DNA of 64,000 bases from Kitasatospora sp. NBC_01287 (GTDB lineage Bacteria; Actinomycetota; Actinomycetes; Streptomycetales; Streptomycetaceae): positions 1,860,001 to 1,924,000 of the forward strand of contig NZ_JAPEPB010000001.1 of NCBI RefSeq assembly GCF_026340565.1. Reading direction: 5' to 3'. Below the pieces are notes generated by a model. The model worked only from the letters and a program-made list of their open reading frames with translations, had not been told where the DNA came from and ran no database searches. Position 1 is the stretch's first letter, and each line of letters opens with the position of its first letter. A program made the position numbers and the translations under genes. This document shows, piece after piece, positions 13,633 to 27,279 of the stretch.

Positions 13633-13968
13633 ATGAGCAACCTTGATGAGTACGGTGGCGGCCCCGGAGCGAACGCGGACGTCCTGGTGGTGACCACCAA
13701 CGACGCGCCCGGGTACCGGGTGGACCGGGTGATCGGGGAGGTGTTCGGGCTGACCGTGCGCAGTCGGCACCTCGGCACGCAGATCGGCGCCTCGTTCAAG
13801 TCGATGCTGGGCGGCGAGCTGCGCGGGCTGACCAAGACGCTGGTGGAGAGCCGCAACCAGGCGATGGAGCGGCTGGTCGAGCAGGCCAAGGCGCGGGGCG
13901 CGAACGCGGTGCTGATGATGCGCTTCGACGTCACCGAGGCCGCCGGAACACCTGTGCATCTTATCTGA
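13633..13968 (+). pseudogene. YbjQ/UPF0145-family gene, 5' part, interrupted by the integrated element
   Basis: ATG at 13633. The sequence follows the YbjQ (DUF74, heavy-metal-binding-like) fold: VLVVTTNDAPGYRVDRVIGE, SRHLGTQIGASFKSMLGGEL, ESRNQAMERLVEQAKARGAN and VLMMRFDV. After T-E-A-A the frame leaves the family and stops at 13968. The missing end (DLGTEICAYGTAVVI) is found in frame at 27208-27279 after the same 13 bases. Joining 13633-13932 to 27208-27279 gives a normal 123-residue protein. The gene is thus the attachment target. Confidence 0.92.
13933..13945 (+). other. Left attachment site core (attL)
   Basis: ACCGAGGCCGCCG, identical to 27208-27220. It encodes T-E-A-A within the YbjQ gene and marks where gene and element diverge. 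A 13-bp shared core is compatible with a large serine integrase, where the true crossover is a central dinucleotide. Confidence 0.88.
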
Positions 13969-13991
13969 GCTGCGGAAACGCGGCCTGTCTC

Positions 13992-14798
13992 TCACCCACG
14001 CAGGTGGAAAGCCCGCGCCCACCGCTCCGCCGCCTCCGTGAGCCGCACGCGCTGCGGCAACGGGTCCTCAGCAGTACGGCTTGCCCAGAACGCGTGGATG
14101 GTCCGGGCGAAGATCCCCAGCCGCTCCGGGTCCGCGTCGCGGTAGGCCGGGACGTGCCGGGCCACCTCGTGAGCCTGCTCCGGCGGGTGCCCCGCTGCGA
14201 TCAGCCGGGGCACCCACAAGGCCGCGTCCGTCCACTCCGGCCCCGGGCAGGACAGGGCCCAGTCGATCAGCCGGACACCGGAGCCGGTCACCAGGAGATT
14301 GAACTCCCCCGCATCGGTGTGAGCGAGCGTGCGCCCGTCCAGGGCCCCCTCACCGCCAGGGGGCACGAACCGGGCCAGGCGGTCACTCAGCGGCTTCTTA
14401 CTGACCTCGACGGGCCAGGGGTGCCCCGACACGATCGAGAGCGCGTAGGCAAGCGGGCGCAGGTCCGGCGAGTCGGGGGCGAAGCTGGGGTGCCTTCCCG
14501 CGAGCGCGCCGTACCCGTAGAGCAGCCAGCCCCCGCCCTCGGCCTGCCAGAGCAACGGCGGGGCCAGCGGAGCTGCGGCGGTCACCCGCGCCTCGTGCCG
14601 GTAGACCCACGCCGTAGGACTGTCCGCCGGGGTGGCCTTCACGAAGACGGGACCGGTTCGGGTGTCCAACATGCTGGCGAAAGCGGACATGACCCCCATC
14701 TCCGCGCTCCGCGCGCCGAGTACCTGACCCGTGTGGTTCTGCACCGCCTCCCGCGCTTCTTCGGGGAGTCCGGCCCAGTCGGTTCGTTGCGACGACAC
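13992..14798 (-). CDS. Aminoglycoside phosphotransferase-like (APH/kinase-fold) protein
   Basis: 268 residues; GTG start with AAGGA 6 nt upstream. Kinase-like features of the APH family: FVKATPADSPTAWVYRHEAR (Lys and Glu of the N-lobe), the catalytic-loop version LAHTDAGEFNLLVTGSG with H-x-D and Asn, and the metal-binding IDWALSCPGPEWTDAALWV. C-terminal helices follow. Substrate unknown; in this family it can be an antibiotic or a metabolite. It is the last gene of the element's left module and is separated from the preceding gene by a strong terminator-like hairpin. Confidence 0.78.
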   Translation of the reverse strand: MSSQRTDWAGLPEEAREAVQNHTGQVLGARSAEMGVMSAFASMLDTRTGPVFVKATPADSPTAWVYRHEARVTAAAPLAPPLLWQAEGGGWLLYGYGALAGRHPSFAPDSPDLRPLAYALSIVSGHPWPVEVSKKPLSDRLARFVPPGGEGALDGRTLAHTDAGEFNLLVTGSGVRLIDWALSCPGPEWTDAALWVPRLIAAGHPPEQAHEVARHVPAYRDADPERLGIFARTIHAFWASRTAEDPLPQRVRLTEAAERWARAFHLRG

Positions 14799-14824
14799 TG
14801 ATGATCCTTTGCCTGAACAGGGAA

Positions 14825-14853
14825 GGCCGGTGCCCCGCTACGGGGCACCGGCC
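14825..14853 (-). terminator. Hairpin between WH-motif gene and kinase-like gene
   Basis: Perfect 13-bp stem (14825-14837 / 14841-14853) with a 3-nt loop, just after the stop at 14866. It would separate the kinase-like gene from the rest of the module or make its expression depend on read-through. Confidence 0.75.
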
Positions 14854-14865
14854 GGGCTTGCTAGG

Positions 14866-15342
14866 TCAGCCCCTCTTGCCCGTGAACGGGCTGTCGGAGC
14901 AGTTGGCGTGGCACTGCGAGCAGTCCGCCAACTCGATCTCCGGCCAGAAGTCCGGTTCGAGCAGGAACCCCAACTCCGCGATGGCGTCGATGGCGCGGGC
15001 CCGCAGCACCTTGCCTCCGCCGTGCTCCTCCGGGTCCAGGTAGCCCGGCTTGTGGTGCACCATCTTGCCGAACGAGGACGTACACCACGTCATGTAAGCC
15101 TCGGTGTTGAGCACGAACGCGTGCCAGTAGTCATCCACCTCCGGCGACGGGCTCAGCGGCCGGTCGCTGGTGGCACAGGCGGTCAGGAACGCCGCCATCT
15201 GACCAACTCCCAGTTCCGCACGCTCCTCGGTCACCGCCGGGTGCTGCGCCCGCATCGTGGTGATGATCAGGGCGCGGACCTCCGGGCGGATGAGGGTGCG
15301 CGGGTCCGTGCCCGCCGACACAGGCTTGATGGTTTCGCTCAT
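14866..15342 (-). CDS. Glycine-rich-domain-protein-like (WH motif) protein with Cys cluster
   Basis: 158 residues; ATG preceded by GGAGG. The centre reads VDDYWHAFVLNTEAYMTWC, then FGKMVHHKPGY (Asp71, Trp73, His74, Tyr83, Cys87, His96, His97), the pattern found in proteins annotated as glycine-rich-domain-containing-protein-1-like. The tail carries CSQCHANC (Cys141, Cys144, Cys148), a likely metal or disulfide site. The conserved His/Asp/Cys set suggests metal binding, but no activity is established that I know of. Part of the XRE module in the integrated element. Confidence 0.65.
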   Translation of the reverse strand: MSETIKPVSAGTDPRTLIRPEVRALIITTMRAQHPAVTEERAELGVGQMAAFLTACATSDRPLSPSPEVDDYWHAFVLNTEAYMTWCTSSFGKMVHHKPGYLDPEEHGGGKVLRARAIDAIAELGFLLEPDFWPEIELADCSQCHANCSDSPFTGKRG

Positions 15343-15472
15343 GGTGCGTACCTCCGTGCGTCGAAGTGATTGGCGCTTGCAACCCGCCTGTCACATCCCC
15401 AGAGATGACAGGGCGGGGGCTTGGAACCCGTGACAGGCCGGACGACCCTTTCCACGGCCCGGCACGGGAGTC

Positions 15473-15646
15473 TCAGATGCGGTGGCGGTGCCGGGCCATG
15501 CCCTCACGCAGCCGCCGCATGGTGTCCGACTCGGCGGCAGGCTCCAACGCTCCGGGGCCGGAGGGGAACTCCGGGTCGCTGGACTGCTCGTCGGCCTCGG
15601 GCTCGCAGTAGGGCGAGTCGGCCGGCAGCTGAGGCTGACCGCCCAT
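15473..15646 (-). CDS. Small acidic hypothetical protein
   Basis: 57 residues. The ATG overlaps the TGA of the preceding gene (TGATG), so translation is probably coupled. Pro/Glu/Asp-rich in the first 35 residues (ADSPYCEPEADEQSSDPEF) and basic at the end (MRRLREGMARHRHRI). No family recognised. The overlap and shared strand make it a real gene more likely than chance. Confidence 0.6.
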   Translation of the reverse strand: MGGQPQLPADSPYCEPEADEQSSDPEFPSGPGALEPAAESDTMRRLREGMARHRHRI

Positions 15647-15831
15647 CACGCCGCCCCCTTTGCCACTCGGTGCCTGGGGCACTCACAGTGCTTCACGTAG
15701 GCGTGCCCCGGGCCCAGGTTCGCGGTCAGGCGTTCCACAGCCGTCGGGTCGTAGTCGTCCAGGGGGTTGCCGGAGCTCGGCTTGGTGCGCTGCTCCGCGC
15801 GGTACTGGGCCATCGTCCTCGGGCTGCTCAT
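15646..15831 (-). CDS. Small hypothetical protein with CxCxxH motif
   Basis: 61 residues; ATG with GGAGG at 8-nt spacing. Polar N-terminus (MAQYRAEQRTKPSSGNPLDD) followed by VERLTANLGPGHAYVKHCEC-PRHR, where Cys-x-Cys-x-x-His could bind a metal. No family recognised. It follows the XRE/DUF5753 regulator by 100 bp and is coupled to the next small gene. Confidence 0.6.
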   Translation of the reverse strand: MSSPRTMAQYRAEQRTKPSSGNPLDDYDPTAVERLTANLGPGHAYVKHCECPRHRVAKGAA

Positions 15832-15931
15832 GCTCACTACCTCCGGTGCAATCCCGTCTGCAATCCCGTTAGCAGGAAGGTAGGGACTGGGCAGACCGAC
15901 CCGCGAGCAAGTTGCACGACCTTGCACGGAT

Positions 15932-16780
15932 TCACCCGAGGGCGGCTATCGCCGACGTGATGAGCGCACGCGCCTGGGCACCGTAGACAGCCATCCGAGA
16001 CAGCTCTTGGAACGCCCGTGCATAGGTGGCAACCTCGCCGGGCGTCGTGATGACCACGCGCGCGGATAGCAGCTCCACCTGTACCCGGGCGTCATCAAAA
16101 ATGGAGAACGTCTCCATGGGCCACAGCTCCCGGCGGCCAGCGTGCGGCACCACTCCGAGCGACACGTTCGGCAGAGCGATCACGGCCAGCAGGTGACCGA
16201 GCTGCCCGGCCATGCCGTCCGAGTCGGCCATCTGGTGATGCAACACGCCCTGCTCGACCAGCAGGGCGAACCGGTGATTGCCCTCGCGGAGGACGTGAGA
16301 TCGCGCCACACGAGCCGCTACGGCTTCTGGCACGTCGTTTGGGATGCCCCGGAACTCAGTGATCGCCTCCAGCAATCCCGTTGCGTAGGCAGGGGTTTGA
16401 AGCAGTCCAGGCACCACCGTGGAGCAGTAGACCCGCATGAGGCGCGTCCGCTCGTAGAGCGGCACCACCTCTTCCTGCGCACGGCGCATGCCGCTGCTGT
16501 GGAGCCGCTTCCACTCGGTATACATCGAGTCGGCCGACCGGGACGCGGCGATAAGGTCAGGCGCTCGCTCCGGCACGCCGCACACCTCGCACCACACCCG
16601 GATATCGGCGTCGGAGGGCGTGGTGCGTGCGTTCTCGATCCGAGAGGACTTGGACGGGTGCCACCCACAGCGCTGGGCCAGCTCAAGGCCGGACAGTTCA
16701 GCGTCCCTGCGGATGGCTCCCAAGGCATCGGCGATGGCTTTCCGGGCCTCTTGAGCACTGGAGAGCGGAGAGGCGGGCAT
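15932..16780 (-). CDS. XRE-family regulator with DUF5753 (Scr1-type) C-terminal domain
   Basis: 282 residues. Residues 8-70 form a helix-turn-helix (AIRRDAELSGLELAQRCGWH, PSKSSRIENARTTPSDADIR). Residues 95-282 match DUF5753: VPLYERTRLMRVYCSTVVPG-LLQT, YATGLLEAI, RFALLVEQGVLHHQM, GVVPHAGRRELWPMETFSIF, VYGAQARALITSAI. Family knowledge: these regulators are abundant in streptomycetes and are often encoded beside a small partner protein in antitoxin-like or developmental pairs. Here it follows a DUF6879 gene by 21 bp. A broken relative lies outside the element at 12111-12543. Confidence 0.9.
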   Translation of the reverse strand: MPASPLSSAQEARKAIADALGAIRRDAELSGLELAQRCGWHPSKSSRIENARTTPSDADIRVWCEVCGVPERAPDLIAASRSADSMYTEWKRLHSSGMRRAQEEVVPLYERTRLMRVYCSTVVPGLLQTPAYATGLLEAITEFRGIPNDVPEAVAARVARSHVLREGNHRFALLVEQGVLHHQMADSDGMAGQLGHLLAVIALPNVSLGVVPHAGRRELWPMETFSIFDDARVQVELLSARVVITTPGEVATYARAFQELSRMAVYGAQARALITSAIAALG

Positions 16781-16801
16781 GGTCAGGCTTGTCCTGGCCC
16801 C

Positions 16802-17329
16802 TCAGACCTTGTAGTCGGCGTGAGGCGTCGCCAGGTCCCAGACAGCTGCGAACGCCGACGCGCACAGCGCCGCAACGGCAGGGGCCTCGGTGTACTCCGG
16901 GTCAGCGCTGGCCCCGTCGCCCGTGAAGTGGTTGAACCGCACGATCCGGCTGTCGAACAGCCAGAAGTCATTGCCGGGCAGTGTGAGCGGCGACGCCAAT
17001 CGGCGCGGCAGCCAGCGAACCTCCTCTCCCGCGCCGACCACCACCGACGTTCCAGCGTGCTCGTATCGGATGTACTCGGAGACGGGCTCCGAGACGATCC
17101 GCGCGCGGCGGACGACCACCCCTCGGCCGGTCGTCTCGCGGATCAACTCCACCCACGTCCGCCAGTGGTCCGACGTGGGGTCAACGTTGCGCGTGCCCGT
17201 CTCCCTCCACGTCCGCAGAGCCTCCGTCTCCCGCGCGATCCCGTAGCTGTCGTGCAGCTCAAGATGAACTGCGGACGTCTTCGCCACCCTCATCAAGTCG
17301 GCGACGGTGGGCACGCTCTGCGACATCAC
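16802..17329 (-). CDS. DUF6879-family protein
   Basis: 175 residues (two adjacent ATG codons). Pattern of DUF6879: AVHLELHDSYGI, W-R-x-x-x-W near 60-65, RRARIVSEPVSEYIRYEH, EEVRWLPRR, DFWLFDSRIVRFNHFTGDG, and a C-terminal AFAAVWDLATPHADY helix. Molecular function is not known to me. It starts 71 bp inside the preceding gene's 3' end in another frame and ends 21 bp before the XRE/DUF5753 gene, an arrangement common in actinomycete genomes. Confidence 0.8.
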   Translation of the reverse strand: MMSQSVPTVADLMRVAKTSAVHLELHDSYGIARETEALRTWRETGTRNVDPTSDHWRTWVELIRETTGRGVVVRRARIVSEPVSEYIRYEHAGTSVVVGAGEEVRWLPRRLASPLTLPGNDFWLFDSRIVRFNHFTGDGASADPEYTEAPAVAALCASAFAAVWDLATPHADYKV

Positions 17330-17558
17330 AAGCCTTTCGGATCATCGGCACCATGCGGAACGGAACACGGAAGATGCCCTCACCCTCGGGGCACCCGGAC
17401 GAGTGGCCGGGGATCTGGGTCTCAGAGCATGTGGCGACGGTCTCGGCGTCGGCCACGTACGACTGAAACACCAGGTCTTCGGCTTCCTCGTCCACCCACA
17501 CGGTAGGGCTCTGGTCCGTGTCCGTGTTGGGATCAATGCCGATGAACGTTAGCTTCAT
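17259..17558 (-). CDS. Small hypothetical protein upstream of DUF6879
   Basis: 99 residues from ATG at 17558 with a G-rich upstream stretch. Begins KLTFIGIDPNTDTDQSPTVW, a pattern I associate with small proteins that precede DUF6879/XRE pairs in streptomycetes; later VATCSETQIPGHSSGC and FRVPFRMVPMIRKACDVAER. No catalytic motif visible. It overlaps the DUF6879 gene by 71 bp, so one of the two starts may be further downstream. Confidence 0.62.
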   Translation of the reverse strand: MKLTFIGIDPNTDTDQSPTVWVDEEAEDLVFQSYVADAETVATCSETQIPGHSSGCPEGEGIFRVPFRMVPMIRKACDVAERAHRRRLDEGGEDVRSSS

Positions 17559-17744
17559 GGTCCCCACCCCTGTCGAGTCAGTTGCACTGGCATGCACGAC
17601 ACTCACCCTTCGGAGCGATGTGCGTCAAGGGTGCCGATGGATACTCAGCCTCTGGCGTAGCCCTCGCAGCCTGACGCCCCGCCAGAGTCACGCAGCGTCC
17701 GCCGCCGGCCGAGCAGAGGGTAACCAACCCAGAACGCACGAAAA

Positions 17745-17778
17745 GCCCCGGCTGCCCAGTTCGTCGGGCGGCCGGGGC
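17745..17778 (-). terminator. Rho-independent-type terminator
   Basis: 8-bp GC stem (17745-17752 / 17771-17778) followed on the minus strand by four T. It lies just after the stop at 17795 and ends transcription from the phage-gene block before the DUF6879/XRE module. Confidence 0.65.
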
Positions 17779-17794
17779 CGGTGTGCTCGGGCGG

Positions 17795-18142
17795 TCAGAT
17801 GCGGTTGCCCCAGCGGTGGGCAGCGAGGCTGCGGGCGGCGTTGGAGCTGCCTGCGGGGGGCTCGTCGCCGGGGAGGCGGACGCGGGCGATCAGGCGGCCC
17901 GCTTCGGCGCGGAGCTGTCGGGCCTCGGCGATCAGGGGGTGGGCGACCATGACGCCGTGGCGGGTGCCTCCGGCGATCAGGCGGCCGTCCGCGCGGACCT
18001 GTTCGTCGCAGTGGGCGGCGTCGCGTAGGTGGTGCTCGGCGAGGCGGAGCGCGGCGTCCTCCTGGGGGTCCAACTCGATCTCCAGGGCGGCGAGTCCGGC
18101 CCGCAGGTCGGTGATGATCTCGTGCAGGGGAACCCCTTTCAC
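17795..18142 (-). CDS. Small-terminase-like protein (P27-type), putative
   Basis: About 115 residues from a GTG at 18142; an in-frame CTG at 18127, 4 nt after AAAGGGGTT, could also serve as start. Pattern: EIITDLRAGLAALEIELDPQ, an Asp/Glu-rich helix, LIAGGTRHGVMVAHPLIAEA, RQLRAEAGRLIARVRLP. The central HPL-x-x-EAR and the final helix resemble P27-type small terminase subunits, which recognise phage DNA for packaging. The match is by eye only and no large terminase is present, so this is tentative. Confidence 0.45.
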   Translation of the reverse strand: MKGVPLHEIITDLRAGLAALEIELDPQEDAALRLAEHHLRDAAHCDEQVRADGRLIAGGTRHGVMVAHPLIAEARQLRAEAGRLIARVRLPGDEPPAGSSNAARSLAAHRWGNRI

Positions 18143-18785
18143 TACTATCAGCGGCTGACTGTAACGCTGTGCGCATGAGGGTTGGTCTGTGCCTGTGCGC
18201 ATCGGTGCTGGGCTGCTATGACGCCCCGGAGGGGAGAGAGGCGAAGAGGGGAGTCACCCCCCGGGGTGCCGCGACCGACGTCATGCACCGACGAGCGCCG
18301 AAACCTCGCGTTCGATCACGTCTCGCGCGCTTCGATTCGGCGAACGCCGACGCCAACTCGACCTTTCACAAGGCTCGTTCGGCTTCGCGATGCACTTGGT
18401 GCTGCGATCGGCCGTACGACTTTGAGCGTCGGTCGCGCATCGGCACGCGCGGCCTCATCAGCGGAAGCGAATTGATGGACAGCATGTCCACCAACCGCCT
18501 GTCCCGTCGTGGCCACCCCATAAAGGCCCCCGTGCGCCCGCCTCGTGGCCTAGCGGGGCAGCTCGAAGGGGGCACTCCGGCGGGCCCCTGAGCGGCTGCC
18601 ACGCGGGGGTCACAGCCTCCAGCCTTTGACCCTGACGGGGAGGGACAGCCTGTCCCTTTCGAAGCCCCTCGCACACGCGCCCCAGCAGGATTTCGAACCA
18701 CAGCCTGTGCCTCTAATTGCGGGTACTGCCTGTACCCGCTATTCCTCTGGCAGGGTCACTGCGGAATTTTCCGCAGTTGGCAGGC
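18143..18785. promoter_or_regulatory. Non-coding region with three GCCTGT-centred palindromes
   Basis: No gene seen in 640 bp. Within 100 bp there are three palindromes: AGGGACAGCCTGTCCCT (18641-18657), CACAGCCTGTG (18699-18709) and GCGGGTACTGCCTGTACCCG (18719-18738). All share the core GCCTGT. They might be operators for one of the two XRE proteins, a packaging signal next to the terminase-like gene, or a replication site. Which one cannot be told from sequence. Confidence 0.55.
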
Positions 18786-19265
18786 TCACCATGCCTGGCG
18801 GAGCAGCCGTTCGGCGATGGCTTGGTGGTCGGGCTTGGCGGGGGCTGTGGGGTCGAGTCCGCCCCGGCCGAACAGCGGACGCGGGGTGGCGGCCTCGGCC
18901 AGGTTGCGGCACAGCGCGTCCAGGTCCACGAAGGGGGCTGCGGCGCGGGCCGCGTCGGCGGCGAACGGCGGCAGCGAGTACCCGGCGATGACCTGTTCCG
19001 CTTCGGCTCGGCGGGCGTCCTCGGCGGCCTGGCCGCGCAGCTCGTCGGCTTCGATGGCCGCACCGTTGTGTTCCTCGCGGATGTGGGTCAACTCGGCTTC
19101 CAGGTCGGCGATTCGGGCGTCTCGTGGGTCGGGCTCGGGCTCCGGCCGGCCGGAGGGCTCAGCGTCGGGTGCGGGTGGCGGCGCGGCGTCAGCGGGCGTG
19201 GGGGTGTCGGGGTGGGCGACGCCCCCAGGGATGGCCTCGGCGGGGGTGGGGTGGTCAGTGGGCAC
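18786..19265 (-). CDS. Coiled-coil acidic protein, possible phage scaffold-like
   Basis: 159 residues. Residues 1-48 are Pro/Ala/Asp-rich; 48-85 form a charged coiled coil (DARIADLEAELTHIREEHNG, AAIEADELRGQAAEDARRAE); the C-terminus is amphipathic (FVDLDALCRNLAEA, FGRGGLDPTAPAKPDHQAIA). Such composition is typical of capsid scaffolding or minor structural proteins, but in phages the scaffold gene usually precedes the coat gene, whereas this one follows it by 154 bp. Function therefore unsure. Confidence 0.5.
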   Translation of the reverse strand: MPTDHPTPAEAIPGGVAHPDTPTPADAAPPPAPDAEPSGRPEPEPDPRDARIADLEAELTHIREEHNGAAIEADELRGQAAEDARRAEAEQVIAGYSLPPFAADAARAAAPFVDLDALCRNLAEAATPRPLFGRGGLDPTAPAKPDHQAIAERLLRQAW

Positions 19266-19419
19266 GGGCCTCTCCGGTCTTCGAGCAGGGGCAATCGGCT
19301 GTCAGAAATGACACCCGGTCGCCCCTGGATCTGTGGTGCGGGGGGCCTCGTCCATTTCTGGACAAGGTCCGGGCGCTGGGACCTTGGGCGGTTCTGGACA
19401 AGGTCCCAGCCCGGTGGGG

Positions 19420-20307
19420 TCACGCCTTGGGCGGGGTGACCGTGAAGGCGATGGCGCGGGCCGGGTCGATGGTGGCCACACCGCACAGGGTGTCCACGAT
19501 GGACACCTCGGACTTCACGGACGGGTCGAAGTCCATGGTCACGCGAAGCGCGTAGCCGTTGTCCGTGGCGGAGACGGAGCGGGCTCCGCCCTGGACCTCG
19601 GAGGGGGCGCGCACAGCGAGGGCGTAGGCGGTCTTGTGGAAGGCCACCGCGCCGTCCAGGTACGGGGAGACGACCACGCGGAAGCCGAACAGCTCGCCCA
19701 TGGTCGCGTTGCGCAGCGCGCGGGGGTCGCCCGCCTCGTTGACCTTCTGGAGCTGTTCGACGTCCAGCAGGATGTTCTGCACGTCCGGGCCGATGGCCAG
19801 GAAGCGATCGGCGGCGGGGATCTCGCGGCGGGTGAAGTCGGCGGCAGCGGCGGTGAGCATCTTCACGACGTGACCGGCCTCGCCGTACTTGGCGTCCGCC
19901 TTGATCACCCGGGCTCCGGTGGTCTTGCTCGCGGCGTTGAGCAGCGCTGCGGCGGCCTTCTCGACGTAGGTCGAGACGGCGTCCATCTGCGGCTTGAGGA
20001 CCTGCTCCCCGAAGCTCTCGATGCTGAGGGTCATGTCCTTGGTGGTGAACGCTGCGGCGTCGGTGGGCTCGTCGGTGAGCTTCACCAGCACGTGGCCTTC
20101 CTCCACCTTGGTGTAGACGGTGGTGCCGTTGAAGTTCTGCGCGATGCGGCGCTTGGGGGTCCGCACTCGCACCACGTCGCCCCGCCCACCGGTGAACGCT
20201 GCCTCGGCGTCGCGCATCACGCACTCGCCGAGTACGGAGTTGGAGCGCATCAGGGCCAGGCTCACGCCGACCACGTCGTTGATCTCGAAGGTGTTGTTGC
20301 TGGGCAT
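19420..20307 (-). CDS. Phage major capsid (P22 coat-like) protein
   Basis: 295 residues from ATG. N-terminus NTFEINDVVGVSLALMRSNS followed by V-L-G-E-C-V-M-R and FTGGRGDVVRVRTPKR, the start typical of P22-coat-type major capsid proteins. Then EGHVLVKLTDEPTDAAAFTT, a long helix-containing YVEKAAAALLNAA, a loop AADRFLAIGPDVQNILL, GELFGFRVVVSPYLDG, and a beta-rich end. Family knowledge: these HK97-fold proteins build icosahedral shells. Somewhat shorter than the P22 coat. It follows an XRE gene by 96 bp with a short hairpin (20354-20380) between. Confidence 0.75.
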   Translation of the reverse strand: MPSNNTFEINDVVGVSLALMRSNSVLGECVMRDAEAAFTGGRGDVVRVRTPKRRIAQNFNGTTVYTKVEEGHVLVKLTDEPTDAAAFTTKDMTLSIESFGEQVLKPQMDAVSTYVEKAAAALLNAASKTTGARVIKADAKYGEAGHVVKMLTAAAADFTRREIPAADRFLAIGPDVQNILLDVEQLQKVNEAGDPRALRNATMGELFGFRVVVSPYLDGAVAFHKTAYALAVRAPSEVQGGARSVSATDNGYALRVTMDFDPSVKSEVSIVDTLCGVATIDPARAIAFTVTPPKA

Positions 20308-20403
20308 CGTGGCGCCTTTCCTAGAGGCCCCGCCACGGCGGCGGGAACGGAGAAGCCCCGGCCATCTGCGTCACGGGGCTGGGGAGTTCGGGTGTCGGGG
20401 TGG

Positions 20404-20778
20404 TCAGCCGGCCGAAGCTGCGGGAAGCCCGTCGAACAGGTCGGCGGCGGTCGGCGGGCGGTAGCCGTCGGGGGCGCGGAACAGCCGCGCGTCACCGCTC
20501 ATGAAGTACTGGTCCCCCGCGCGACGCAGGCGCAGCAGGGTGGAGAGGAACATGAACTCGGCGTCCGGGTTGGCCTCCCACGCTTCGTGGTTGACCACGT
20601 CGCGGTAGGTCAGTCCGAGCGCGTTGCACCACGTGAGGTAGTGGGCGGGGGTCGGGGTCTTGTCCTCGGCCTCCCAGGCGTAGACGGTGGCGACGTGGAC
20701 GCCGACGCGGTCGGCGACCTCGGCTACGGACAGGTCCAGGGCCTTGCGGCGGGCGGAGAGTGAGAAGGGGTGGATCAC
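20404..20778 (-). CDS. XRE/Cro-type DNA-binding protein
   Basis: 124 residues; GTG at 20778 is preferred because AAGGA precedes it by 9 nt, although ATG codons exist 14 codons further upstream. Residues 1-60 are a helix-turn-helix: FSLSARRKALDLSVAEVADR, VGVHVATVYAWEAEDKTPT, then YLTWCNALGL. The C-terminal half (WEANPDAEFMFLSTLLRLRR, DARLFRAPDGYRPPTA) is unrecognised. Placed between the HNH nuclease and the capsid gene, it may be the element's repressor or a late-gene regulator. Confidence 0.75.
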   Translation of the reverse strand: MIHPFSLSARRKALDLSVAEVADRVGVHVATVYAWEAEDKTPTPAHYLTWCNALGLTYRDVVNHEAWEANPDAEFMFLSTLLRLRRAGDQYFMSGDARLFRAPDGYRPPTAADLFDGLPAASAG

Positions 20779-20966
20779 GGCTGGGGGTCCTTCATTCGGT
20801 CGGGTGACGGGGTTCATGATCACCAGGGGGTTCGGGGTGAAACGGCACGCTGGCAGGCTCGTCTGCCCCGAATCTGGTGATCATGGTCCGGGGTCGGGAG
20901 ACGGCTCGGGCCGCTGCGGCAAGGGGCTCGGCGGGGTCGGGGCGGGGTGCGGCCCCCTCCCTGGAC

Positions 20967-21797
20967 TCAGAGGGTCGGGGGGTTTGCGCACGTCACGACA
21001 TCCCCCCGAATCTGAGGTGGGGTCAGGCGTTCGCGGGGTGAGATCCACTCGGTCAGCAGCATGTCGCCCTTGTCGGTGTTGCAGTCCCGGCAGGCCCAGC
21101 GGAGATTGGCGATCTCCGTGCGCCCGCCGCGCGCCACCGGCACGACGTGGTCCAGGACTTCGCCCGGCGTGGCCAGTGCGGGCGGGCAGTACGCGCAGCG
21201 GTCGCCGTGGCGCTCGGACACCTTCCGGCGGATCGACTCTCGGCGGTCCTTGAGGCGGCGGCGCTGCTCGGCCTGGCAGGCTTGGCAGACGCCGTCCGGG
21301 AACTGCATCACCTCCTTGCGGAAGCGGCAGCGTCGGCATGGGCGGGGCTTCTCGCCTTGATCTCTACCGGCCTGCCGGGCCTTGCGGCGGGCGTGCTCGG
21401 CCGCGCGGGAGCACTTCTCGGAGCAGTAGCGCCTGCGGGGGTCCGCCAGCGCGTCCACGACGCCCGTGCACCGGGGGTTGTGGCATGGCCGGGGGCCCTG
21501 TGCGGTGCGCTCCAGTAGTTCGGCGCGGCGGGCGTCCTCACGGCGGCGCGCCCTGCGGTCGGCCGCGCACCGTTCGCAGTAGGTGACCTGCCCGGCGAGG
21601 GCGGGCCGCCTGCCCGACGGCTCGCCGCACTCACCGCACAGCGCGGGGTCCGCAAGCTCTCTCAGCGCCGCGCGCTGGGACTCCTGTGCCAGGGCGAACG
21701 CCCTGCGGCAGCGGTCGTCCGCACAGACCGCCTGCGGGCCGTCCCGGGCCCGGGGCCGCACCCCGCACACCCGGCACCGAGCCGTGATGGTCTCCAT
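20967..21797 (-). CDS. HNH endonuclease with multiple zinc-ribbon knuckles
   Basis: 276 residues; ATG with GGAGGAG upstream. The C-terminus holds an HNH domain: DRCAYCPPAL, LDHVVPVARGGRTEIANLRW, ACRDCNTDKGDMLLTEW (first His of HNH in LDHV, Asn in NLRW, final CxxC). The first 190 residues carry at least five CxxC-type knuckles (CRVCGV, CGECGEPSG, CERCAADRR, YCSEKCSRAAEHARRKARQA, CRRCRFRK, CQACQAEQRRR), more than usual for phage HNH enzymes. Phage HNH proteins often sit near terminase and help DNA packaging, but this one lies upstream of an XRE gene. A nicking or packaging role is inferred. Confidence 0.85.
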   Translation of the reverse strand: METITARCRVCGVRPRARDGPQAVCADDRCRRAFALAQESQRAALRELADPALCGECGEPSGRRPALAGQVTYCERCAADRRARRREDARRAELLERTAQGPRPCHNPRCTGVVDALADPRRRYCSEKCSRAAEHARRKARQAGRDQGEKPRPCRRCRFRKEVMQFPDGVCQACQAEQRRRLKDRRESIRRKVSERHGDRCAYCPPALATPGEVLDHVVPVARGGRTEIANLRWACRDCNTDKGDMLLTEWISPRERLTPPQIRGDVVTCANPPTL

Positions 21798-21893
21798 GTC
21801 CGGCACTCCTCCCCCCGACGAAACGCGGTGATCATGAACAGGTGCAGGCGCAACCGCCCCTCTCGCCTGCGGGCGAATCCCGAGGCAAAAGCA

Positions 21894-21922
21894 AGAGACC
21901 CCGGCACACGGCCGGGGTCTCT
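21894..21922. terminator. Hairpin upstream of the HNH gene
   Basis: Perfect 12-bp stem (21894-21905 / 21911-21922) with 5-nt loop. It separates the HNH gene's promoter region from transcripts coming from the integrase side. Confidence 0.65.
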
Positions 21923-22137
21923 CACAGATGCAGCCAAAGGCACCGCGCGCCTGCATCTCTGCACATATGTTCAGGCAGTCCGGTTAAGAGCGTTGTGGTG
22001 AACCGTGCGGCGTTCGAGGTTTGCAGGTGGGGAGGGTGAGCGTTCGCACGCAGGTGCCCGTGACCGCTTGGGCGTGAAGCAACGGGCCCCTTGGTAGAGA
22101 GCTGGTTGTCGAGACCGCTTTCGCCCGAGGAGGCCCG

Positions 22138-23103
22138 TTGCCCAACCAGTTCAGCACTCCCGGTGCCGGCGAGTCCACTGCGCTCACTCCGGGGTGTGAC
22201 TGCTACGTGCACCTGTACGGGGCGATCGGGGAGGGGCACCGCGCGCCGCGCTACGACAGCGACATGACGGACGCCGAATGGGCGGTGATCCGCGGCGCGA
22301 TGCCGATGCCCGCCTGGCTGGAGGGGAAGGGCGGACGCCCTGAGGCGCACTGCCACCGGGGGGTGATCGACGCGGTGCGCTATCTGGTCGACAATGGCGT
22401 CAAGTGGCGCAATCTACCTGCGGACTACCCCTTCTGGCGGGCGGTGTACGACTTCTTCCGCCGCTGGCGCCGCCACGGCTACATCCGCGAGCTCTACCAG
22501 CGCTTGCGCCGCACCGAGCGCAAGAAGCAGGGCAAGGCGACGGAGCCGAGCGCGGGCATCATCGACTCTCAGTCCGTGGACGGCTCGGAGACCTGTCCGG
22601 CCACCTCACGCGGCTTCGACGGCGGCAAGCTGCGCGACGGGCGCAAGCGCCACGTCCTGACCGACACCGGCGGACTGCTGCTGGAGGTCACCGTCACCGC
22701 GGCCAACGTGCACGACTCCAAGGCCGCCCCGGAGTTGCTCGAGGCATTCATGGCCGAGCCCGGACGGCTGCTCGAACTCGTGTGGACGGACTCCGCCTAC
22801 CAGGGCCAGGAACTGGCCGACGCCTTCGCCGCGCACGGGGTGAGAGTGGAGGTGGTCAAGCGCACCGACGGAACCAAGGGGTTCAGGGTACTGGCGCGCA
22901 GGTGGGTGGTGGAGCGCACGCTCGGCTGGCTCTCGCGCTCGCGGCGCCTGAACCGCGACCACGAGCGCCGCGACGACCACCACGTGCAGATGGTGTGGTG
23001 GGCCGCCTCGATCACCCTCGGCCGGCGGATGGCCCGCCAGCGCCTGCACTGGCCCGAGTTCCGCCCGCACCGGCTCCCCGCGCCGGGCCCGGCGCGGGGA
23101 TGA
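22138..23103 (+). CDS. IS5-family DDE transposase
   Basis: 321 residues; TTG start with GGAGG 4 nt upstream (an internal ATG at MTDAEWAVIRGAM is the conserved family start and remains possible). DDE features: Asp in IIDSQSVDGSE, GFDGGKLRDGRKRHVLTDTG, Asp in LVWTDSAYQGQELAD, then RWVVERTLGWLSRSRRLNRD with the catalytic Glu. Intact, so probably active. Confidence 0.93.
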   Translation: MPNQFSTPGAGESTALTPGCDCYVHLYGAIGEGHRAPRYDSDMTDAEWAVIRGAMPMPAWLEGKGGRPEAHCHRGVIDAVRYLVDNGVKWRNLPADYPFWRAVYDFFRRWRRHGYIRELYQRLRRTERKKQGKATEPSAGIIDSQSVDGSETCPATSRGFDGGKLRDGRKRHVLTDTGGLLLEVTVTAANVHDSKAAPELLEAFMAEPGRLLELVWTDSAYQGQELADAFAAHGVRVEVVKRTDGTKGFRVLARRWVVERTLGWLSRSRRLNRDHERRDDHHVQMVWWAASITLGRRMARQRLHWPEFRPHRLPAPGPARG

Positions 23104-23668
23104 ACAACCCGCCCGGCACCCGCCCCAGCCAGCCCCTGGCCTGCAGCGCATAGGCCCGGTGACGGACCTTCTCGATCTCCTTCAGCCGCTCTGCGTCCCG
23201 CCCCAGCGCGACAGTCAACGCCTTGACCGCCACCGGGGCACCCGCACCCGCGACCACATCGAAGACCTGCCGATAGGCCCCGGCCAGCACCTCCACGCCC
23301 AGGCCCGGCTGCCACGCAGGCGGCCGCGGATCGTAACCCGTCCGCAGGACCGAAGGCACCGCGGGCACTGCCGGCTCCGGCACGCCGTCCCCCGCCTCGT
23401 GCGGCGGCTGCGGCGGCACTTGCGGTGCCGTCACCGGCGCCAGCGCGCGAGCGGTGGGCGTCACCGCAGTCAGCGGCTGCACCATCACGGCCTCGGCCTC
23501 CTCCGCCAGCGCACGCAGCACCTCCTCCCGGCCGATCCGCGCACACTCCAACCGCTCCTGATGGACAGCCACCTGCTCCTGGGCCTCGCGCAGCAGCTCC
23601 TGCCAGGCATCCAACTCTTCCCGGGCCCGCGCCTCACGACGCTCCAGCAACGCAATCACCGACGGCAC
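23012..23668 (-). CDS. Passenger protein in IS5 element: coiled coil plus winged-helix-like end
   Basis: 218 residues from GTG at 23668 with GGAGG at 8 nt. Residues 1-60 are a long charged coiled coil (IALLERREARAREELDAWQE, LLREAQEQVAVHQERLECAR). Residues 60-130 are Pro/Val-rich. Residues 130-195 look like a winged helix (AYRQVFDVVAGAGAPVAVKA, LTVALGRDAERLKEIEKVRH, RAYALQARGWLGRVPGGLFI). Its 3' end overlaps the transposase 3' end by 92 bp. I know similar proteins beside streptomycete transposases but no tested function; a regulator or target-choice factor is plausible. Confidence 0.7.
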   Translation of the reverse strand: MPSVIALLERREARAREELDAWQELLREAQEQVAVHQERLECARIGREEVLRALAEEAEAVMVQPLTAVTPTARALAPVTAPQVPPQPPHEAGDGVPEPAVPAVPSVLRTGYDPRPPAWQPGLGVEVLAGAYRQVFDVVAGAGAPVAVKALTVALGRDAERLKEIEKVRHRAYALQARGWLGRVPGGLFIPAPGPARGAGAGGTRASAGAGGPSAGRG

Positions 23669-23795
23669 GAACGACACCTCCACCACCGACCCAACCAACC
23701 GTCAGCTGGCTGCCCTGAAGAAGCCATCCACACACCACCGTGCTGAGGAAACCGCAGCTCATCGAGCTACAGAGCGGTTCACCACAACGCTCTAA

Positions 23796-24084
23796 CGCCG
23801 TCCCGTCTTCTCATGACAGAGAACGTCTCCACACATATTGAGCCGGGGCGGTTAACAAGCGTCAGGGTCGCGCGTGCCCTCCTCCTTCTACTCCCACCCT
23901 CGCGGCTTCTGCCACACCATCTCCAGCAGGTCCGCCGATAACCGCGCATCCTGTGGAAGCCCTACAAGCCCTGGAGCACACAGCCGCTCAATCCCGGGCC
24001 GCCACCCCAGCCGCCGGCTGGGAGGTTTCCTACAACGACAGCGGGCCGCCCGCCGGAGTCGGCAGACGGCCTGTCGGGCACCCC
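23796..24084. other. Gap between IS5 element and integrase 3' end
   Basis: No recognisable gene. Short frames on both strands lack ribosome binding sites and family motifs. This would have been directly downstream of the integrase gene before the IS5 insertion. Confidence 0.4.
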
Positions 24085-24561
24085 TCAGGCGGCAGCCAGT
24101 TCGGCCCACTTGATCGACACGCGCTTGTGGCCGTCGAACCCCCGGACACCCCGGACACCCTTGGTGATCACCACACGGTCAATGGCCAGCCGGAGCAGGT
24201 CCCGCCGAAGCGGCAAGTCGGCAGCCTCCCACGCCTCCCGCGCCCACCGGTGCTCCAGCAGGAACCCGATCTCCAGCGGCCCGCCGCCCGAAAGCTCCGT
24301 AACCCGCTCCTGCGCTGTGACCAACCGGGCCTCGGCCTCGGCAACCAGTCGGGGGAGGTGCTTCCCCATCGCGCCGCTGTAGAGCCCCGCTGCGTGCGCT
24401 TCCGCGAGCCGCTGTACGCCCGCCTCGGCGGCTTTCAACGCGCCTCTGGCCTCGTCCAGCTCCCGCGTCTCATCCGGGTGCTGGTGAGCCGCCCAGCGTT
24501 GCGCCACGACGGCCAGCAACTCCAGGTCATCCGGGTTCTCCGCCCTCTCTGTCAGCCTTGG
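24085..24561 (-). pseudogene. Large serine integrase, C-terminal part (detached by IS3 insertion)
   Basis: About 150 codons that start at the IS3 boundary and end with TGA at 24085. Sequence fits the C-terminal coiled-coil and tail of large serine recombinases: ELLAVVAQRWAAHQHPDETR, a heptad-like region (ARGALKAAEAGVQRLAEAHA), YSGAMGKHLPRLVAEAEARL, then LPLRRDLLRLAIDRVVITKG and a basic end. It continues the gene whose N-terminal part is at 26048-27143. Confidence 0.8.
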
Positions 24562-24621
24562 GTGAGACGTCCCGCTTTGTCGGGTTAGCCTGAGAGGGCC
24601 CGAGTAGGAGTTCCATCCCTG

Positions 24622-25005
24622 ATGACCAGCACCAATCCGTCCGCTGCCGACCCGGCTCCCAGGCCGAAGCGCCGCACGTTCAGTCCCGAGTACAAGCTGC
24701 GGATCGTCGCCGAGTACGACGCCGCGCCCAAGAACGAGAAGGGTGCGGTTCTGCGCCGCGAGCGCCTGTACCACTCGCACGTCACCGAGTGGCGGGCCGC
24801 GCGCGATGCCGGGGCCCTGGAGAACCTGGTCGACCACCGCACCAGCCCGGCCCGCCCGAAGAAGTCCGCCACCGAGGTCGAGAACGAGAAGCTGCGCCGG
24901 CAGGTGGAACGGCTGGAGAGGGAGCTCGCCCGGAACAAGGCAGCGTTGGAGGTCCTGGGAAAAGCGTCGGCGCTCTTGGAAATGATCTCCGAGAGCGCGG
25001 ACTGA
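24622..25005 (+). CDS. IS3-family OrfA
   Basis: 127 residues. RRTFSPEYKLRIVAEYDAAP is the family start; helix-turn-helix in VLRRERLYHSHVTEWRAARD; coiled coil ENEKLRRQVERLERELARNK; end LGKASALLEMISESAD. A GGAAAAG stretch at 24958-24964 is a plausible -1 slippery site for OrfAB synthesis. Confidence 0.9.
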   Translation: MTSTNPSAADPAPRPKRRTFSPEYKLRIVAEYDAAPKNEKGAVLRRERLYHSHVTEWRAARDAGALENLVDHRTSPARPKKSATEVENEKLRRQVERLERELARNKAALEVLGKASALLEMISESAD

Positions 25006-26030
25006 AGCACGCCGCGGACCCCGTCGTGGACGAGGCGTTCACCGCCGTCGAACACGAGCTCGGCACCACGGCCGCATGCCGGCTGACCGGCCGCTCCCGG
25101 GCCACCCACTACCGCAGGCTTCAGCCGACGCCCGCACGCAAGCCCAGGTCGCCCCAGGTCCAGCCATCGGCCCTGACAGCCGAAGAGCGCACTGCGGTAC
25201 TGGAGTTGATGAACAGCCCCGAGTACGCCGAACTGGCGCCCGCGCAGATCTGGGCCCGTGAGCTGGACACCGGGCGCTACCACTGCTCGGTCTCCACGAT
25301 GTACCGGATCCTGCGTGAGCGGGGGCAGTCCGGTGAGCGCCGCCGCCAGGCCACCCACCCGGCCAAGACGGTGCCCGAACTGGTCGCCGACGGCCCCTCC
25401 CAGGTGTTCACCTGGGACATCACCAAAGCTGCCGGCCCCAGGAAGGGCATCTGGTACCACGCCTACGTGATCATCGACATCTTCAGCCGCTACATCGTCG
25501 GCCACACCGTCGAACTGGCCGAATCAGCCGAGCGGGCGGAGGAGTTGATCCGCGAGACCATCGCGCGCAACGGCATCGTCCCCGAGACCGTGCACGCCGA
25601 CCGGGGCACCTCGATGACCTCCAAGAAGGTCTCCCAGCTGCTGATCGACCTCGGCGTCACCCGGAGTCACTCGCGTCCGAAGGTCTCCAACGACAACCCT
25701 TACAGCGAGGCCCAGTTCAAGACCACCAAGTACATGTCCGACTACCCCGAGCGGTTCGACTCCCTGGCCCATGCCCGCGAATGGTTCGACGCCTTCATCT
25801 CGTACTACAACCACGAGCACAGGCACTCGGGTATCGGACTTCACACGCCCGCCAGCGTCCACTTCGGCACGGCGGAGGAGATCCGCGACCAGCGGTCCGT
25901 CACCCTCGCCGAGGCCTACGCGCGCCACCCCGAACGCTTCGGCCGCCGTCCCAGACCACCCGAGATCCCGAAGACGGCATGGATCAACGACCCCGCCAAG
26001 CGCAGGGAACCCGCACCACAAACCTCATAA
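24960..26030 (+). CDS. IS3-family transposase OrfB (expressed by -1 frameshift)
   Basis: The frame one base behind orfA runs to TAA at 26030. Contains HELGTTAACRLTGRSRATHY, APAQIWARELDTGRYHCSVS, and the rve core: Asp in VFTWDITKAAGPRKGIWYHA, Asp in TVHADRGTSMTSKKVSQLL and Glu in SNDNPYSEAQFKTTKYM, then EWFDAFISYYNHEHRHSGIG. Catalytic residues are all present. The start given is the probable slip site; a separate internal start cannot be excluded. Confidence 0.88.
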   Translation, partial: KSVGALGNDLRERGLKHAADPVVDEAFTAVEHELGTTAACRLTGRSRATHYRRLQPTPARKPRSPQVQPSALTAEERTAVLELMNSPEYAELAPAQIWARELDTGRYHCSVSTMYRILRERGQSGERRRQATHPAKTVPELVADGPSQVFTWDITKAAGPRKGIWYHAYVIIDIFSRYIVGHTVELAESAERAEELIRETIARNGIVPETVHADRGTSMTSKKVSQLLIDLGVTRSHSRPKVSNDNPYSEAQFKTTKYMSDYPERFDSLAHAREWFDAFISYYNHEHRHSGIGLHTPASVHFGTAEEIRDQRSVTLAEAYARHPERFGRRPRPPEIPKTAWINDPAKRREPAPQTS

Positions 26031-26047
26031 CGTCACGACCGTCTCAC

Positions 26048-27143
26048 TGGACTTGAAATCTTCCGCCGGGTCCGCCGTGGTCAGCCGGGCGAGCCACATC
26101 CGAGTGACGAACTCCTCCAGCGGCGGGCGGCTCACTGACACCGGGGCTGGGCAAAGCTTGCCCTGCGTATGCCAGGAACAGACGTGACTGCGGCCGGTGG
26201 ACGGCGCAGCCCCGCCACAACCGCCGCACTCGGCAAGGTCAGTGAGCAGATGCCGCGCGGTCCCCTGCTTCGCGCCCTGCCCACGGATCGGCATCACGTG
26301 GCCTGCCAGCGCCCGGCGCGCCCGATCGGCGAGGTCCTGCGAGACCAGCTCAACACCCTCGGCCACCACCGACACCCGGTCCCCGGCCGCGTCGCGGTAT
26401 TCGACCGCGTGGCCCGGCACACCCTTGCGGTTCGTCACCTGCCATCCCTGATAGGCGGGGTTGTAGATGATCCGGTGGATGGACGACACCGACCACTGAC
26501 CACCGCGCGCGGGCCGACTCGCCCATGTGTCAGCGGCGTTCATCTCCCGCGCCGTCGCCCGACCAGACTTGCCGTCGGCGATGGTCTCGAACAGCCTCAG
26601 GACCGTCGCCCAGAGATCAGCCTGCCCCGGCTTGAGCTTTCGCGTCTTCGGGTCCACGTCGAGCCCGTACGGTGCCTGCCCCAACCACTTGCCAGCGTTG
26701 CGCTGTGTGGCCTTCGTGTCCCGGACGTTGTAGCTCAGCCGGTCGGAATACTCGCGGGCCTGCTCGGCAGAGTCGATGATCCTCCGCCGATCGCGGGGCT
26801 CGGCGGAGTCCAGCCGCTCATAGTCGAAGATCAGCCGCTTACCGGCGTCCAGAATCGGCACCACGTCCCCGGCACCCTTCCGGGACCACCGGTCCATGGC
26901 GTAGCACCACAGGGCAGGAACGTCGTCCGCTCGCAGCGCCGACAGGGCCTTGTCGAACTCCGGCCGCTTGATGTCCGACCACGCCGACAGGTTGTCCACC
27001 CACACCCGCCGGACCGTGTACCCGTGGTCATCCGCCCAGCGGCGACCCCGATCCTCCTGTGCCTGCACGGACAGCAGGTCGCGGGCTTCGCGCTCCCGAA
27101 CGACCTTGGACTTCCGTAGGTACAGGTCGATTTCCTCGGCCAT
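26048..27143 (-). pseudogene. Large serine integrase, N-terminal and recombinase part
   Basis: ATG at 27143. Catalytic domain: LYLRKSKVVREREARDLLSV with Ser12, then VRRVWVDNLSAWSDIKRPEF and LWCYAMDRWSRKGAGDVVPI. Recombinase domain: YGLDVDPKTRKLKPGQADLW, ATAREMNAADTWASRPARGG, QWSVSSIHRIIYNPAYQGW. Zinc ribbon: AECGGCGGAAPSTGRSHVCS with C at the end in KLCPAP. After EDFKS the frame enters the IS3 element. About 150 C-terminal codons lie detached at 24085-24561. The enzyme would catalyse attP x attB recombination; in the present form it lacks the coiled-coil part and is probably inactive. 65 bp from attR. Confidence 0.92.
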
Positions 27144-27207
27144 GCTCTCAGTCTCCGCGCGTCGCTGGATCCCCGCACGTCAGAGGAGGTGCGGGGGTGT
27201 TCCAGCA

Positions 27208-27220
27208 ACCGAGGCCGCCG
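27208..27220 (+). other. Right attachment site core (attR)
   Basis: ACCGAGGCCGCCG, the same 13 bases as at 13933-13945. From here the YbjQ frame resumes. Confidence 0.88.
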
Positions 27221-27279
27221 ATCTGGGCACCGAGATCTGCGCCTACGGCACGGCGGTGGTGATCAGCCCGGTCGCCTGA
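27208..27279 (+). pseudogene. YbjQ/UPF0145-family gene, 3' end
   Basis: Reads T-E-A-A-DLGTEICAYGTAVVISPVA and stops with TGA at 27277-27279. This is the canonical end of YbjQ proteins and continues exactly from residue 100 of the gene beginning at 13633. Confidence 0.9.

What the first reader, a model, noticed from the sequence alone, without database searches (positions are those of the whole stretch)
13933..27220. A 13.3-kb element splits a YbjQ-family gene and can be excised on paper with an exact join
Both halves of a YbjQ gene lie 13.3 kb apart and share ACCGAGGCCGCCG; joined they give a normal 123-residue protein. The serine integrase lies beside the right core. This defines attL, attR and attB exactly, and a YbjQ gene is not among the integration targets I know best (tRNA genes and others).
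Basis: seen in the sequence. Interest (0 to 1): 0.85.

Follow-up and report, generated by a model that had tools for sequence, protein, structure and literature searches.

The report
Phage satellite parked inside YbjQ gene
A small DNA element that carries virus shell genes but no complete virus sits inside a bacterial gene at an exactly defined site; in this genome its integrase gene has been cut in two by a jumping gene, so it is probably stuck.

Summary
ACCGAGGCCGCCG occurs only at 13933 and 27208; the joined flanks give a 123-residue YbjQ protein; 68 of 70 held genomes of the genus have the gene in one piece. The other split genome, G088, holds the same element in the same codons, with an intact 510-residue serine integrase and neither insertion sequence. 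The crossover lies in GAGGC, most likely at GA, the centre of a palindromic attP (arms agree at 22 of 24 positions in G088, 17 of 24 here). And the window's integrase is split by an IS3-type element (24543-26065), so excision is 'on paper' only. The cargo is phage head genes: capsid protein, scaffold-like and small-terminase-like proteins, plus an HNH nuclease; no large terminase, portal or tail was recognised. A diverged cousin (G021) has capsid, scaffold and small-terminase-like genes too, and relatives of all three lie in a prophage of the same genome. Best reading: a satellite that redirects a helper phage's head assembly and packaging. No paper listed by my searches names YbjQ as an integrase target.

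The parts
13633..13968 (+). 5' part of the YbjQ-family gene (host), ending in an element-derived tail GTPVHLI and stop
   Evidence: NCBIfam YbjQ-type models, best 4.7e-20, scores below their cut-offs for this truncated form
13933..13945 (+). attL core (13-bp copy); likely exchanged dinucleotide GA at 13936-13937
13992..14798 (-). accessory gene; resembles the phosphotransferase (APH/choline-kinase) fold by eye only (recalled); no Pfam match at E<=0.01
14866..15342 (-). accessory gene, unknown; 27% over 83 residues to a gene of the G088 element
15473..15682 (-). small ORF kept in the G088 element (80%)
15932..16780 (-). XRE-type regulator with DUF5753
16802..17329 (-). DUF6879-type gene (51% to the G086 homologue that matches DUF6879)
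17795..18202 (-). small-terminase-like protein
   Evidence: phrog_1496 3.6e-4 (the G086 and G021 counterparts 1.3e-4 and 1.2e-4); 35% E 5e-14 to the gene next to the large terminase in the G000:C2 prophage
18786..19265 (-). scaffold-like protein (unstructured N-terminus, long helix 47-95, C-terminal helix)
   Evidence: no family match of its own; 40% E 3e-12 to the prophage protein that matches head scaffolding phrog_233; model pLDDT 78
19420..20307 (-). major capsid protein
   Evidence: PF11651 P22 coat 1.4e-14; phrog_283 9e-41; PDB 8zdh major capsid protein 9e-17; matches in 432 phage records, all under 60% identity
20404..20823 (-). HTH regulator
20967..21956 (-). HNH endonuclease
21988..23792 (+). 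IS5-type insertion sequence (DUF4096/DDE transposase 22138-23103), 3-bp target duplication TAA
   Evidence: ends read from the comparison with G088
24085..24542 (-). C-terminal part of the serine integrase, cut off from its start
   Evidence: 97% to residues 356-510 of the G088 integrase
24543..26065 (+). IS3-type insertion sequence (transposase frames with HTH_Tnp_1 and rve matches), 3-bp target duplication CCG
   Evidence: ends read from the comparison with G088
26066..27143 (-). N-terminal part (about 359 codons) of the large serine integrase; the frame runs on into the IS to 26025
   Evidence: Resolvase and Recombinase domains; 98-99% to G088
27208..27220 (+). attR core (13-bp copy); GA at 27211-27212
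27211..27279 (+). 3' end of the YbjQ gene (host)

Best explanation
The 13.3-kb insert is a phage satellite of about 9.9 kb plus two later insertion sequences. A large serine integrase put it into the YbjQ gene by one exchange between a palindromic attP and the codons for Val-Thr-Glu-Ala (shown by sequence: attL, attR, empty site, second copy in the same codons of another genome). When mobile, it would depend on a tailed helper phage for large terminase, portal, protease, tail and lysis, and supply its own capsid protein and scaffold to set the kind or size of head and its own small terminase (perhaps with the HNH nuclease) to steer packaging to its own DNA (inferred from gene content). In this genome an IS3-type insertion has split the integrase, so this copy is probably locked in and YbjQ stays truncated (inferred).
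For: Same site and element with an intact 510-aa integrase in G088. Between the two genomes dS is 0.12 for the integrase and 0.09 for HNH but 0.37 for host YbjQ, so at least this part of the element moved after the hosts diverged. dN/dS on head genes is low: 0.13-0.24 (capsid, 3 pairs), 0.17-0.26 (scaffold, 3 pairs), 0.25 (TerS-like, 1 pair). The block HNH-HTH-capsid-scaffold-TerS recurs in G000, G088 and G086, in G086 with another integrase (41-46%) while its YbjQ is intact. G021 has a diverged cousin (integrase 55%, capsid 34%) whose own frames match head scaffolding (phrog_233 1.3e-6) and small terminase (phrog_1496 1.2e-4). No large terminase, portal or tail match in the frames scanned or by tblastn with prophage proteins. 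The same genome holds a prophage with a full structural set, whose TerS-like, scaffold and capsid proteins are relatives of the element's.
Against: No circle, packaging or transfer was observed. Small-terminase and scaffold labels rest on weak family hits (window scaffold: none of its own) plus homology and position; the prophage TerS-like gene has no Pfam or PHROGs match; the TerS model is poor (pLDDT 61). No primase or replication gene was recognised. G088, G086 and G021 show no second related capsid gene at the cut-off, and the window's capsid protein is only 28-30% identical to that of the resident prophage, so this prophage need not be the helper. dN/dS of the HTH gene is 0.53-0.62. The tblastn probe is of limited reach: it missed large terminases in L115 and L118, which look like prophages.
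Confidence: 0.63

Rival explanations
1. Decayed prophage: a temperate siphovirus integrated in YbjQ, lost terminase, portal and tail genes, and is now a remnant.
For: Phage integrase, HNH and capsid genes; two insertion sequences and a broken integrase in the window copy.
Against: The same compact gene set recurs in three genomes, and in part in G021, with open frames and dN/dS of 0.13-0.26 on capsid and scaffold genes; G088 lacks both insertions. Gene order is capsid-scaffold-TerS, not the TerS-TerL-portal-protease-scaffold-capsid order of the resident prophage, so simple deletion does not give it. The integrase moved between genomes.
Confidence: 0.18
2. Integrative element that carries captured phage head genes for another use, for example as defence by poisoning the capsid assembly of infecting phages, and moves by some other route.
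For: No replication genes recognised; accessory genes differ between copies; the capsid homologue Ccm blocks phage growth (PMC5052747, passages).
Against: No conjugation gene among the frames scanned; PADLOC gave only weak HNH and HTH matches among ten proteins; small-terminase-like genes point to packaging.
Confidence: 0.12
3. Developmentally excised element that restores YbjQ on cue, like the skin element in sigK or the fdxN element (recalled).
For: Serine recombinase and exact restoration of the frame; a weak match to XisF (37 bits against a cut-off of 375).
Against: Present in 2 of 70 genomes; cargo is phage head genes; XisF score is a tenth of its cut-off; the enzyme is broken in the window.
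Confidence: 0.03

Closest known systems
SaPIbov5 and other cos-type SaPIs with Ccm (PMC5052747 and PMC8569155, abstract and passages seen)
   Same: Integrated satellite with a homologue of a phage capsid protein; Ccm takes the pentamer positions and makes an isometric instead of a prolate head.
   Different: Here scaffold-like and small-terminase-like genes come with the capsid gene, and the integrase is a serine one; relation by sequence was not tested.
MulchRoom and MiniFlayer, Streptomyces satellite phages (PMC10690885, abstract and sections 12 and 17)
   Same: Satellite-encoded capsid protein, scaffold, small terminase and HNH, no primase; MulchRoom has a GntR-type HTH gene, as does the G088 element.
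   Different: They also carry large terminase, portal and head-tail adaptor; MulchRoom has a tyrosine integrase; their helpers are virulent phages.
Capsid-forming PICIs (as mentioned in PMC10690885; the primary paper was not read)
   Same: Satellite with its own capsid gene.
   Different: They have a packaging-and-capsid module (recalled: with large terminase, portal and protease) that this element lacks.
SCO2603-type elements at the phiJoe attB (PMC5311408, passages)
   Same: Serine-integrase elements of varying content in a conserved protein-coding gene of Streptomyces; crossover dinucleotide at the centre of an imperfect inverted repeat.
   Different: Target is a radical SAM gene, 74 bp from its end; no head genes are mentioned in the passages seen.

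Membership tests
Large serine integrase element | Resolvase + Recombinase + zinc-ribbon integrase | tested here: met
   Resolvase and Recombinase above cut-off, zinc ribbon below it; whole 510-aa frame in G088. In the window the gene is split
Large serine integrase element | attL/attR with short core, palindromic attP, uninterrupted attB in relatives | tested here: met
Large serine integrase element | Integration, and excision with a directionality factor | not testable with these tools
   no directionality-factor gene was identified
Phage satellite (broad sense) | Small integrated element with phage packaging or head genes but no full virion gene set | tested here: met
Phage satellite (broad sense) | Mobilised in helper-dependent particles | not testable with these tools
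   needs induction or infection
PICI (strict) | Primase/replication module | tested here: not met
   none recognised in the scanned frames; divergent genes could be missed
Capsid-forming PICI | Large terminase, portal and protease with the capsid gene | tested here: not met
   none by Pfam, PHROGs or tblastn with the prophage proteins
Conjugative element of actinobacteria (AICE) | FtsK/Tra translocase and replication initiator | tested here: not met
   no such match in the scanned frames
YbjQ family | Full-length similarity to UPF0145/YbjQ | tested here: met
   joined protein matches 2gtc (named UPF0145 protein) and 1vr4, E about 2e-6, residues 18-119 and 18-117

The most novel reading that the evidence does not exclude
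A family of actinobacterial satellites that carry just the genes needed to take over a helper's head programme (capsid protein, scaffold, small terminase, often HNH), borrow portal, motor and tail, and travel with interchangeable serine integrases; one branch uses YbjQ as its address. This would be a minimal 'head-swap' satellite between Ccm-type SaPIs and capsid-forming PICIs.
Probability: 0.43. Interest if true: 0.65.

Novelty: new variant of a known kind. Interest (0 to 1): 0.5.

Why it matters
It gives a mapped integrase/attP/attB set for a gene found in all 70 held genomes of the genus, with an intact integrase in a sister genome. More importantly it points to a satellite type whose head genes have relatives in a prophage of the same genome, so capsid and packaging redirection can be tested directly.

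Tried and rejected
Rejected: the 13-bp repeat as the exact crossover (G088 narrows it to GAGGC). Rejected: an intact integrase in the window. Looked for and not found: other elements in the same YbjQ codons. Of 394 family genomes 291 match YbjQ; I looked at 20 with several or weak matches and, apart from G000 and G088, none is split near residue 104; six look frameshifted, gapped or truncated elsewhere. The rows in the middle were not printed, so this is not exhaustive.

Led nowhere: a GACGTCACCGA motif shared by the YbjQ attB and the G021 insertion region. Exact in G021; in 0 of the other 13 upstream stretches (the window's own among them), with 1.2% chance per stretch; the stretch tested is the attR side, so the test was also poorly aimed. 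The G086 target could not be named: its flank matches a multi-copy sequence, and the overlapping frame has no Pfam match. The genome-contig scan gave one partial relative (63%, Streptomyces sp. NRRL S-350); viral scans gave one integrase relative at 45% and five capsid relatives at 29-32%. Tblastn of the scaffold-like and TerS-like proteins against phage records found nothing. The TerS model was too poor to search and I made no fold search. In one search the row G088_MCP was translated out of frame and is ignored.
Full report
OBSERVATION. ACCGAGGCCGCCG occurs twice in the window, at 13933 and 27208, and nowhere else. Reading from ATG 13633 through the first copy and on from the second gives 123 residues and a stop; without joining, the frame stops after 104 native residues plus GTPVHLI. 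The joined protein matches two solved chains, 2gtc (UPF0145) and 1vr4, from residue 18 to 117-119.

EMPTY SITE. All 70 held genomes of the genus match the protein; in 68 the match is one piece over residues 1 to 121-123, and only G000 (the window) and G088 are split. The exchange point was read in the 48 intact-gene loci then at hand (of 68 intact genomes): 47 have GA there and one (L028, genome G005) has CA.

SISTER COPY. In G088 (L057, opposite strand) the same element lies between the same codons. It measures 9830 bp from GA to GA against 13,275 in the window. The difference is mostly two insertion sequences absent from G088: an IS3-type unit at 24543-26065 with duplicated CCG and an IS5-type unit at 21988-23792 with duplicated TAA (ends read off by eye against G088). 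Without them the window element is about 9.94 kb. The IS3-type unit cuts the integrase: about 359 codons remain beside attR and the rest lies at 24085-24542. G088 has the whole gene, 510 residues, 98% identical over the shared part. The only other integrase match in G000 at the cut-off is 47% identical. So excision by its own enzyme is unlikely in the window strain; this is inference, not test.

ATTACHMENT SITES. In the window attL and attR share 13 bp, but in G088 only GAGGC is common around the exchange. Reassembled attP is a palindrome centred on GA: arms agree at 22 of 24 positions in G088 and 17 of 24 in the window; the next best centre within 15 bp gives 10 and 11, and 20,000 shuffles of the G088 sequence reached at most 16. 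attB shows no such symmetry at GA (9 of 24 in the window, 7 of 24 in G088). The exchange point is thus most likely GA, in the codon after the conserved Val-Thr (or Val-Ser).

HORIZONTAL MOVEMENT. Between G000 and G088 dS is 0.12 for the integrase and 0.09 for HNH, against 0.37 for the first 100 codons of host YbjQ. Capsid and scaffold genes differ more (0.26 and 0.38), so the element is a mosaic. G086 carries the HNH-HTH-capsid-scaffold-TerS block (capsid 90%) with a different integrase (41% over 482 residues; 46%) and an intact YbjQ. Of 394 family genomes, 10 had an integrase relative at the strict cut-off, and only G000 and G088 were above 55%.

COUSIN IN G021. Here an integrase 55% identical and a capsid protein 34% identical lie with an HTH gene, a protein that itself matches head scaffolding (phrog_233 1.3e-6), a small-terminase-like gene (phrog_1496 1.2e-4), a DUF6879 and an XRE-DUF5753 gene. 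The insert, roughly 8 kb, lies between two diverged copies of the 3' end of a Pyr_redox_2/Reductase_C gene, so it seems to restore its target, unlike the YbjQ element.

CARGO. The capsid protein is secure, and so is HNH. The 159-residue protein has no family match of its own but is 40% identical to a prophage protein that matches head scaffolding families; its single-sequence model shows a long helix and a C-terminal helix. The 135-residue protein has a weak small-terminase match, as have its G086 and G021 counterparts; the G088 version matches Terminase_4 below cut-off. It is 35% identical to the gene next to the large terminase of the prophage, which itself has no Pfam or PHROGs match. Large terminase, portal, protease or tail were not found: the main frames of the window and G088 elements were scanned with Pfam and PHROGs, eight frames of G086 and six of G021 with one or both, and all four by tblastn with the prophage proteins. 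That tblastn missed such genes in L115 and L118, so it is the weaker test.

RESIDENT PROPHAGE. At G000 C2, about 463-498 kb, PHROGs finds large terminase, portal, protease, scaffold, head-tail adaptor, major tail protein, tape measure, endolysin and exonuclease among ten proteins scanned; the capsid match lies beside the scaffold. Its ends were not mapped. It could be a helper, but its capsid protein is only 28-30% identical to the element's, and G088, G086 and G021 show no second related capsid gene at E 1e-20.

SELECTION. dN/dS is 0.13-0.24 for capsid (3 pairs), 0.17-0.26 for scaffold (3 pairs), 0.25 for TerS-like (1 pair), 0.06 for integrase (1 pair), 0.26-0.38 for HNH (2 pairs) and 0.53-0.62 for the HTH gene (3 pairs) (simple Nei-Gojobori counts, no significance test). 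This speaks against plain decay of the head genes.

HOW IT LIKELY WORKS. Shown by sequence: site-specific integration, target, att sites, two carriers at one site, gene content, damage in the window copy. Inferred: helper-dependent packaging, with the element's capsid, scaffold and small terminase acting with a helper's portal, motor and tail. The nearest tested parallel is Ccm of SaPIbov5, a capsid-protein homologue that occupies the pentamers and shrinks the head (PMC8569155, abstract and passages; PMC5052747, passages). Another SaPI uses Rcm, a small helical protein that binds the helper's capsid protein and is thought to compete with its scaffold (PMC12409344, abstract and passages). Streptomyces satellites MulchRoom and MiniFlayer carry a fuller head set (PMC10690885, abstract and sections 12 and 17).

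NOVELTY. Searches for YbjQ or UPF0145 with integrase, attB, prophage or integration terms listed no paper holding either name; but 20 of 647, 12 of 1,088, 15 of 1,903 and 40 of 4,404 papers were listed. The recombinase survey PMC10083194 was seen in passages only and its target tables could not be opened. For satellites with capsid, scaffold and small terminase but no portal, searches listed none that I recognised by title or abstract. So 'not seen', not 'new' with certainty.

Noticed in passing
L108 8318-8900 (G090:C1:2463317-2463841): Intact YbjQ followed after about 55 bp by a second, degraded copy of its last ~35 codons including the attB core: a tandem partial duplication or scar.
   Followed up: partly
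L109 2820-3080 and 10935-11195 (G021): The cousin element lies between two diverged copies of the 3' end of a Pyr_redox_2/Reductase_C gene, so it seems to restore its target.
   Followed up: partly
G128, G155, G240, G276, G348, G384: YbjQ looks frameshifted, gapped or truncated in six family genomes, so the gene may be dispensable.
   Followed up: partly
G000:C2 about 463-498 kb (L110-L112): Siphovirus-type prophage with a full structural set; the integrase at its edge is 42-47% identical to that of the YbjQ element.
   Followed up: partly
L113 3553-8246 (G227) and L114 6007-13465 (G228): Two further regions with a related capsid gene near an integrase (serine in L113, tyrosine in L114) and no tblastn match to the prophage large terminase or portal: possible further satellites; L113 also has a VG15/protease-like match.
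   Followed up: partly
13946-13968: The element supplies an immediate stop: YbjQ ends in GTPVHLI (GTPLHLI in G088), superficially like the lost strand GTAVVIS; probably chance.
   Followed up: no
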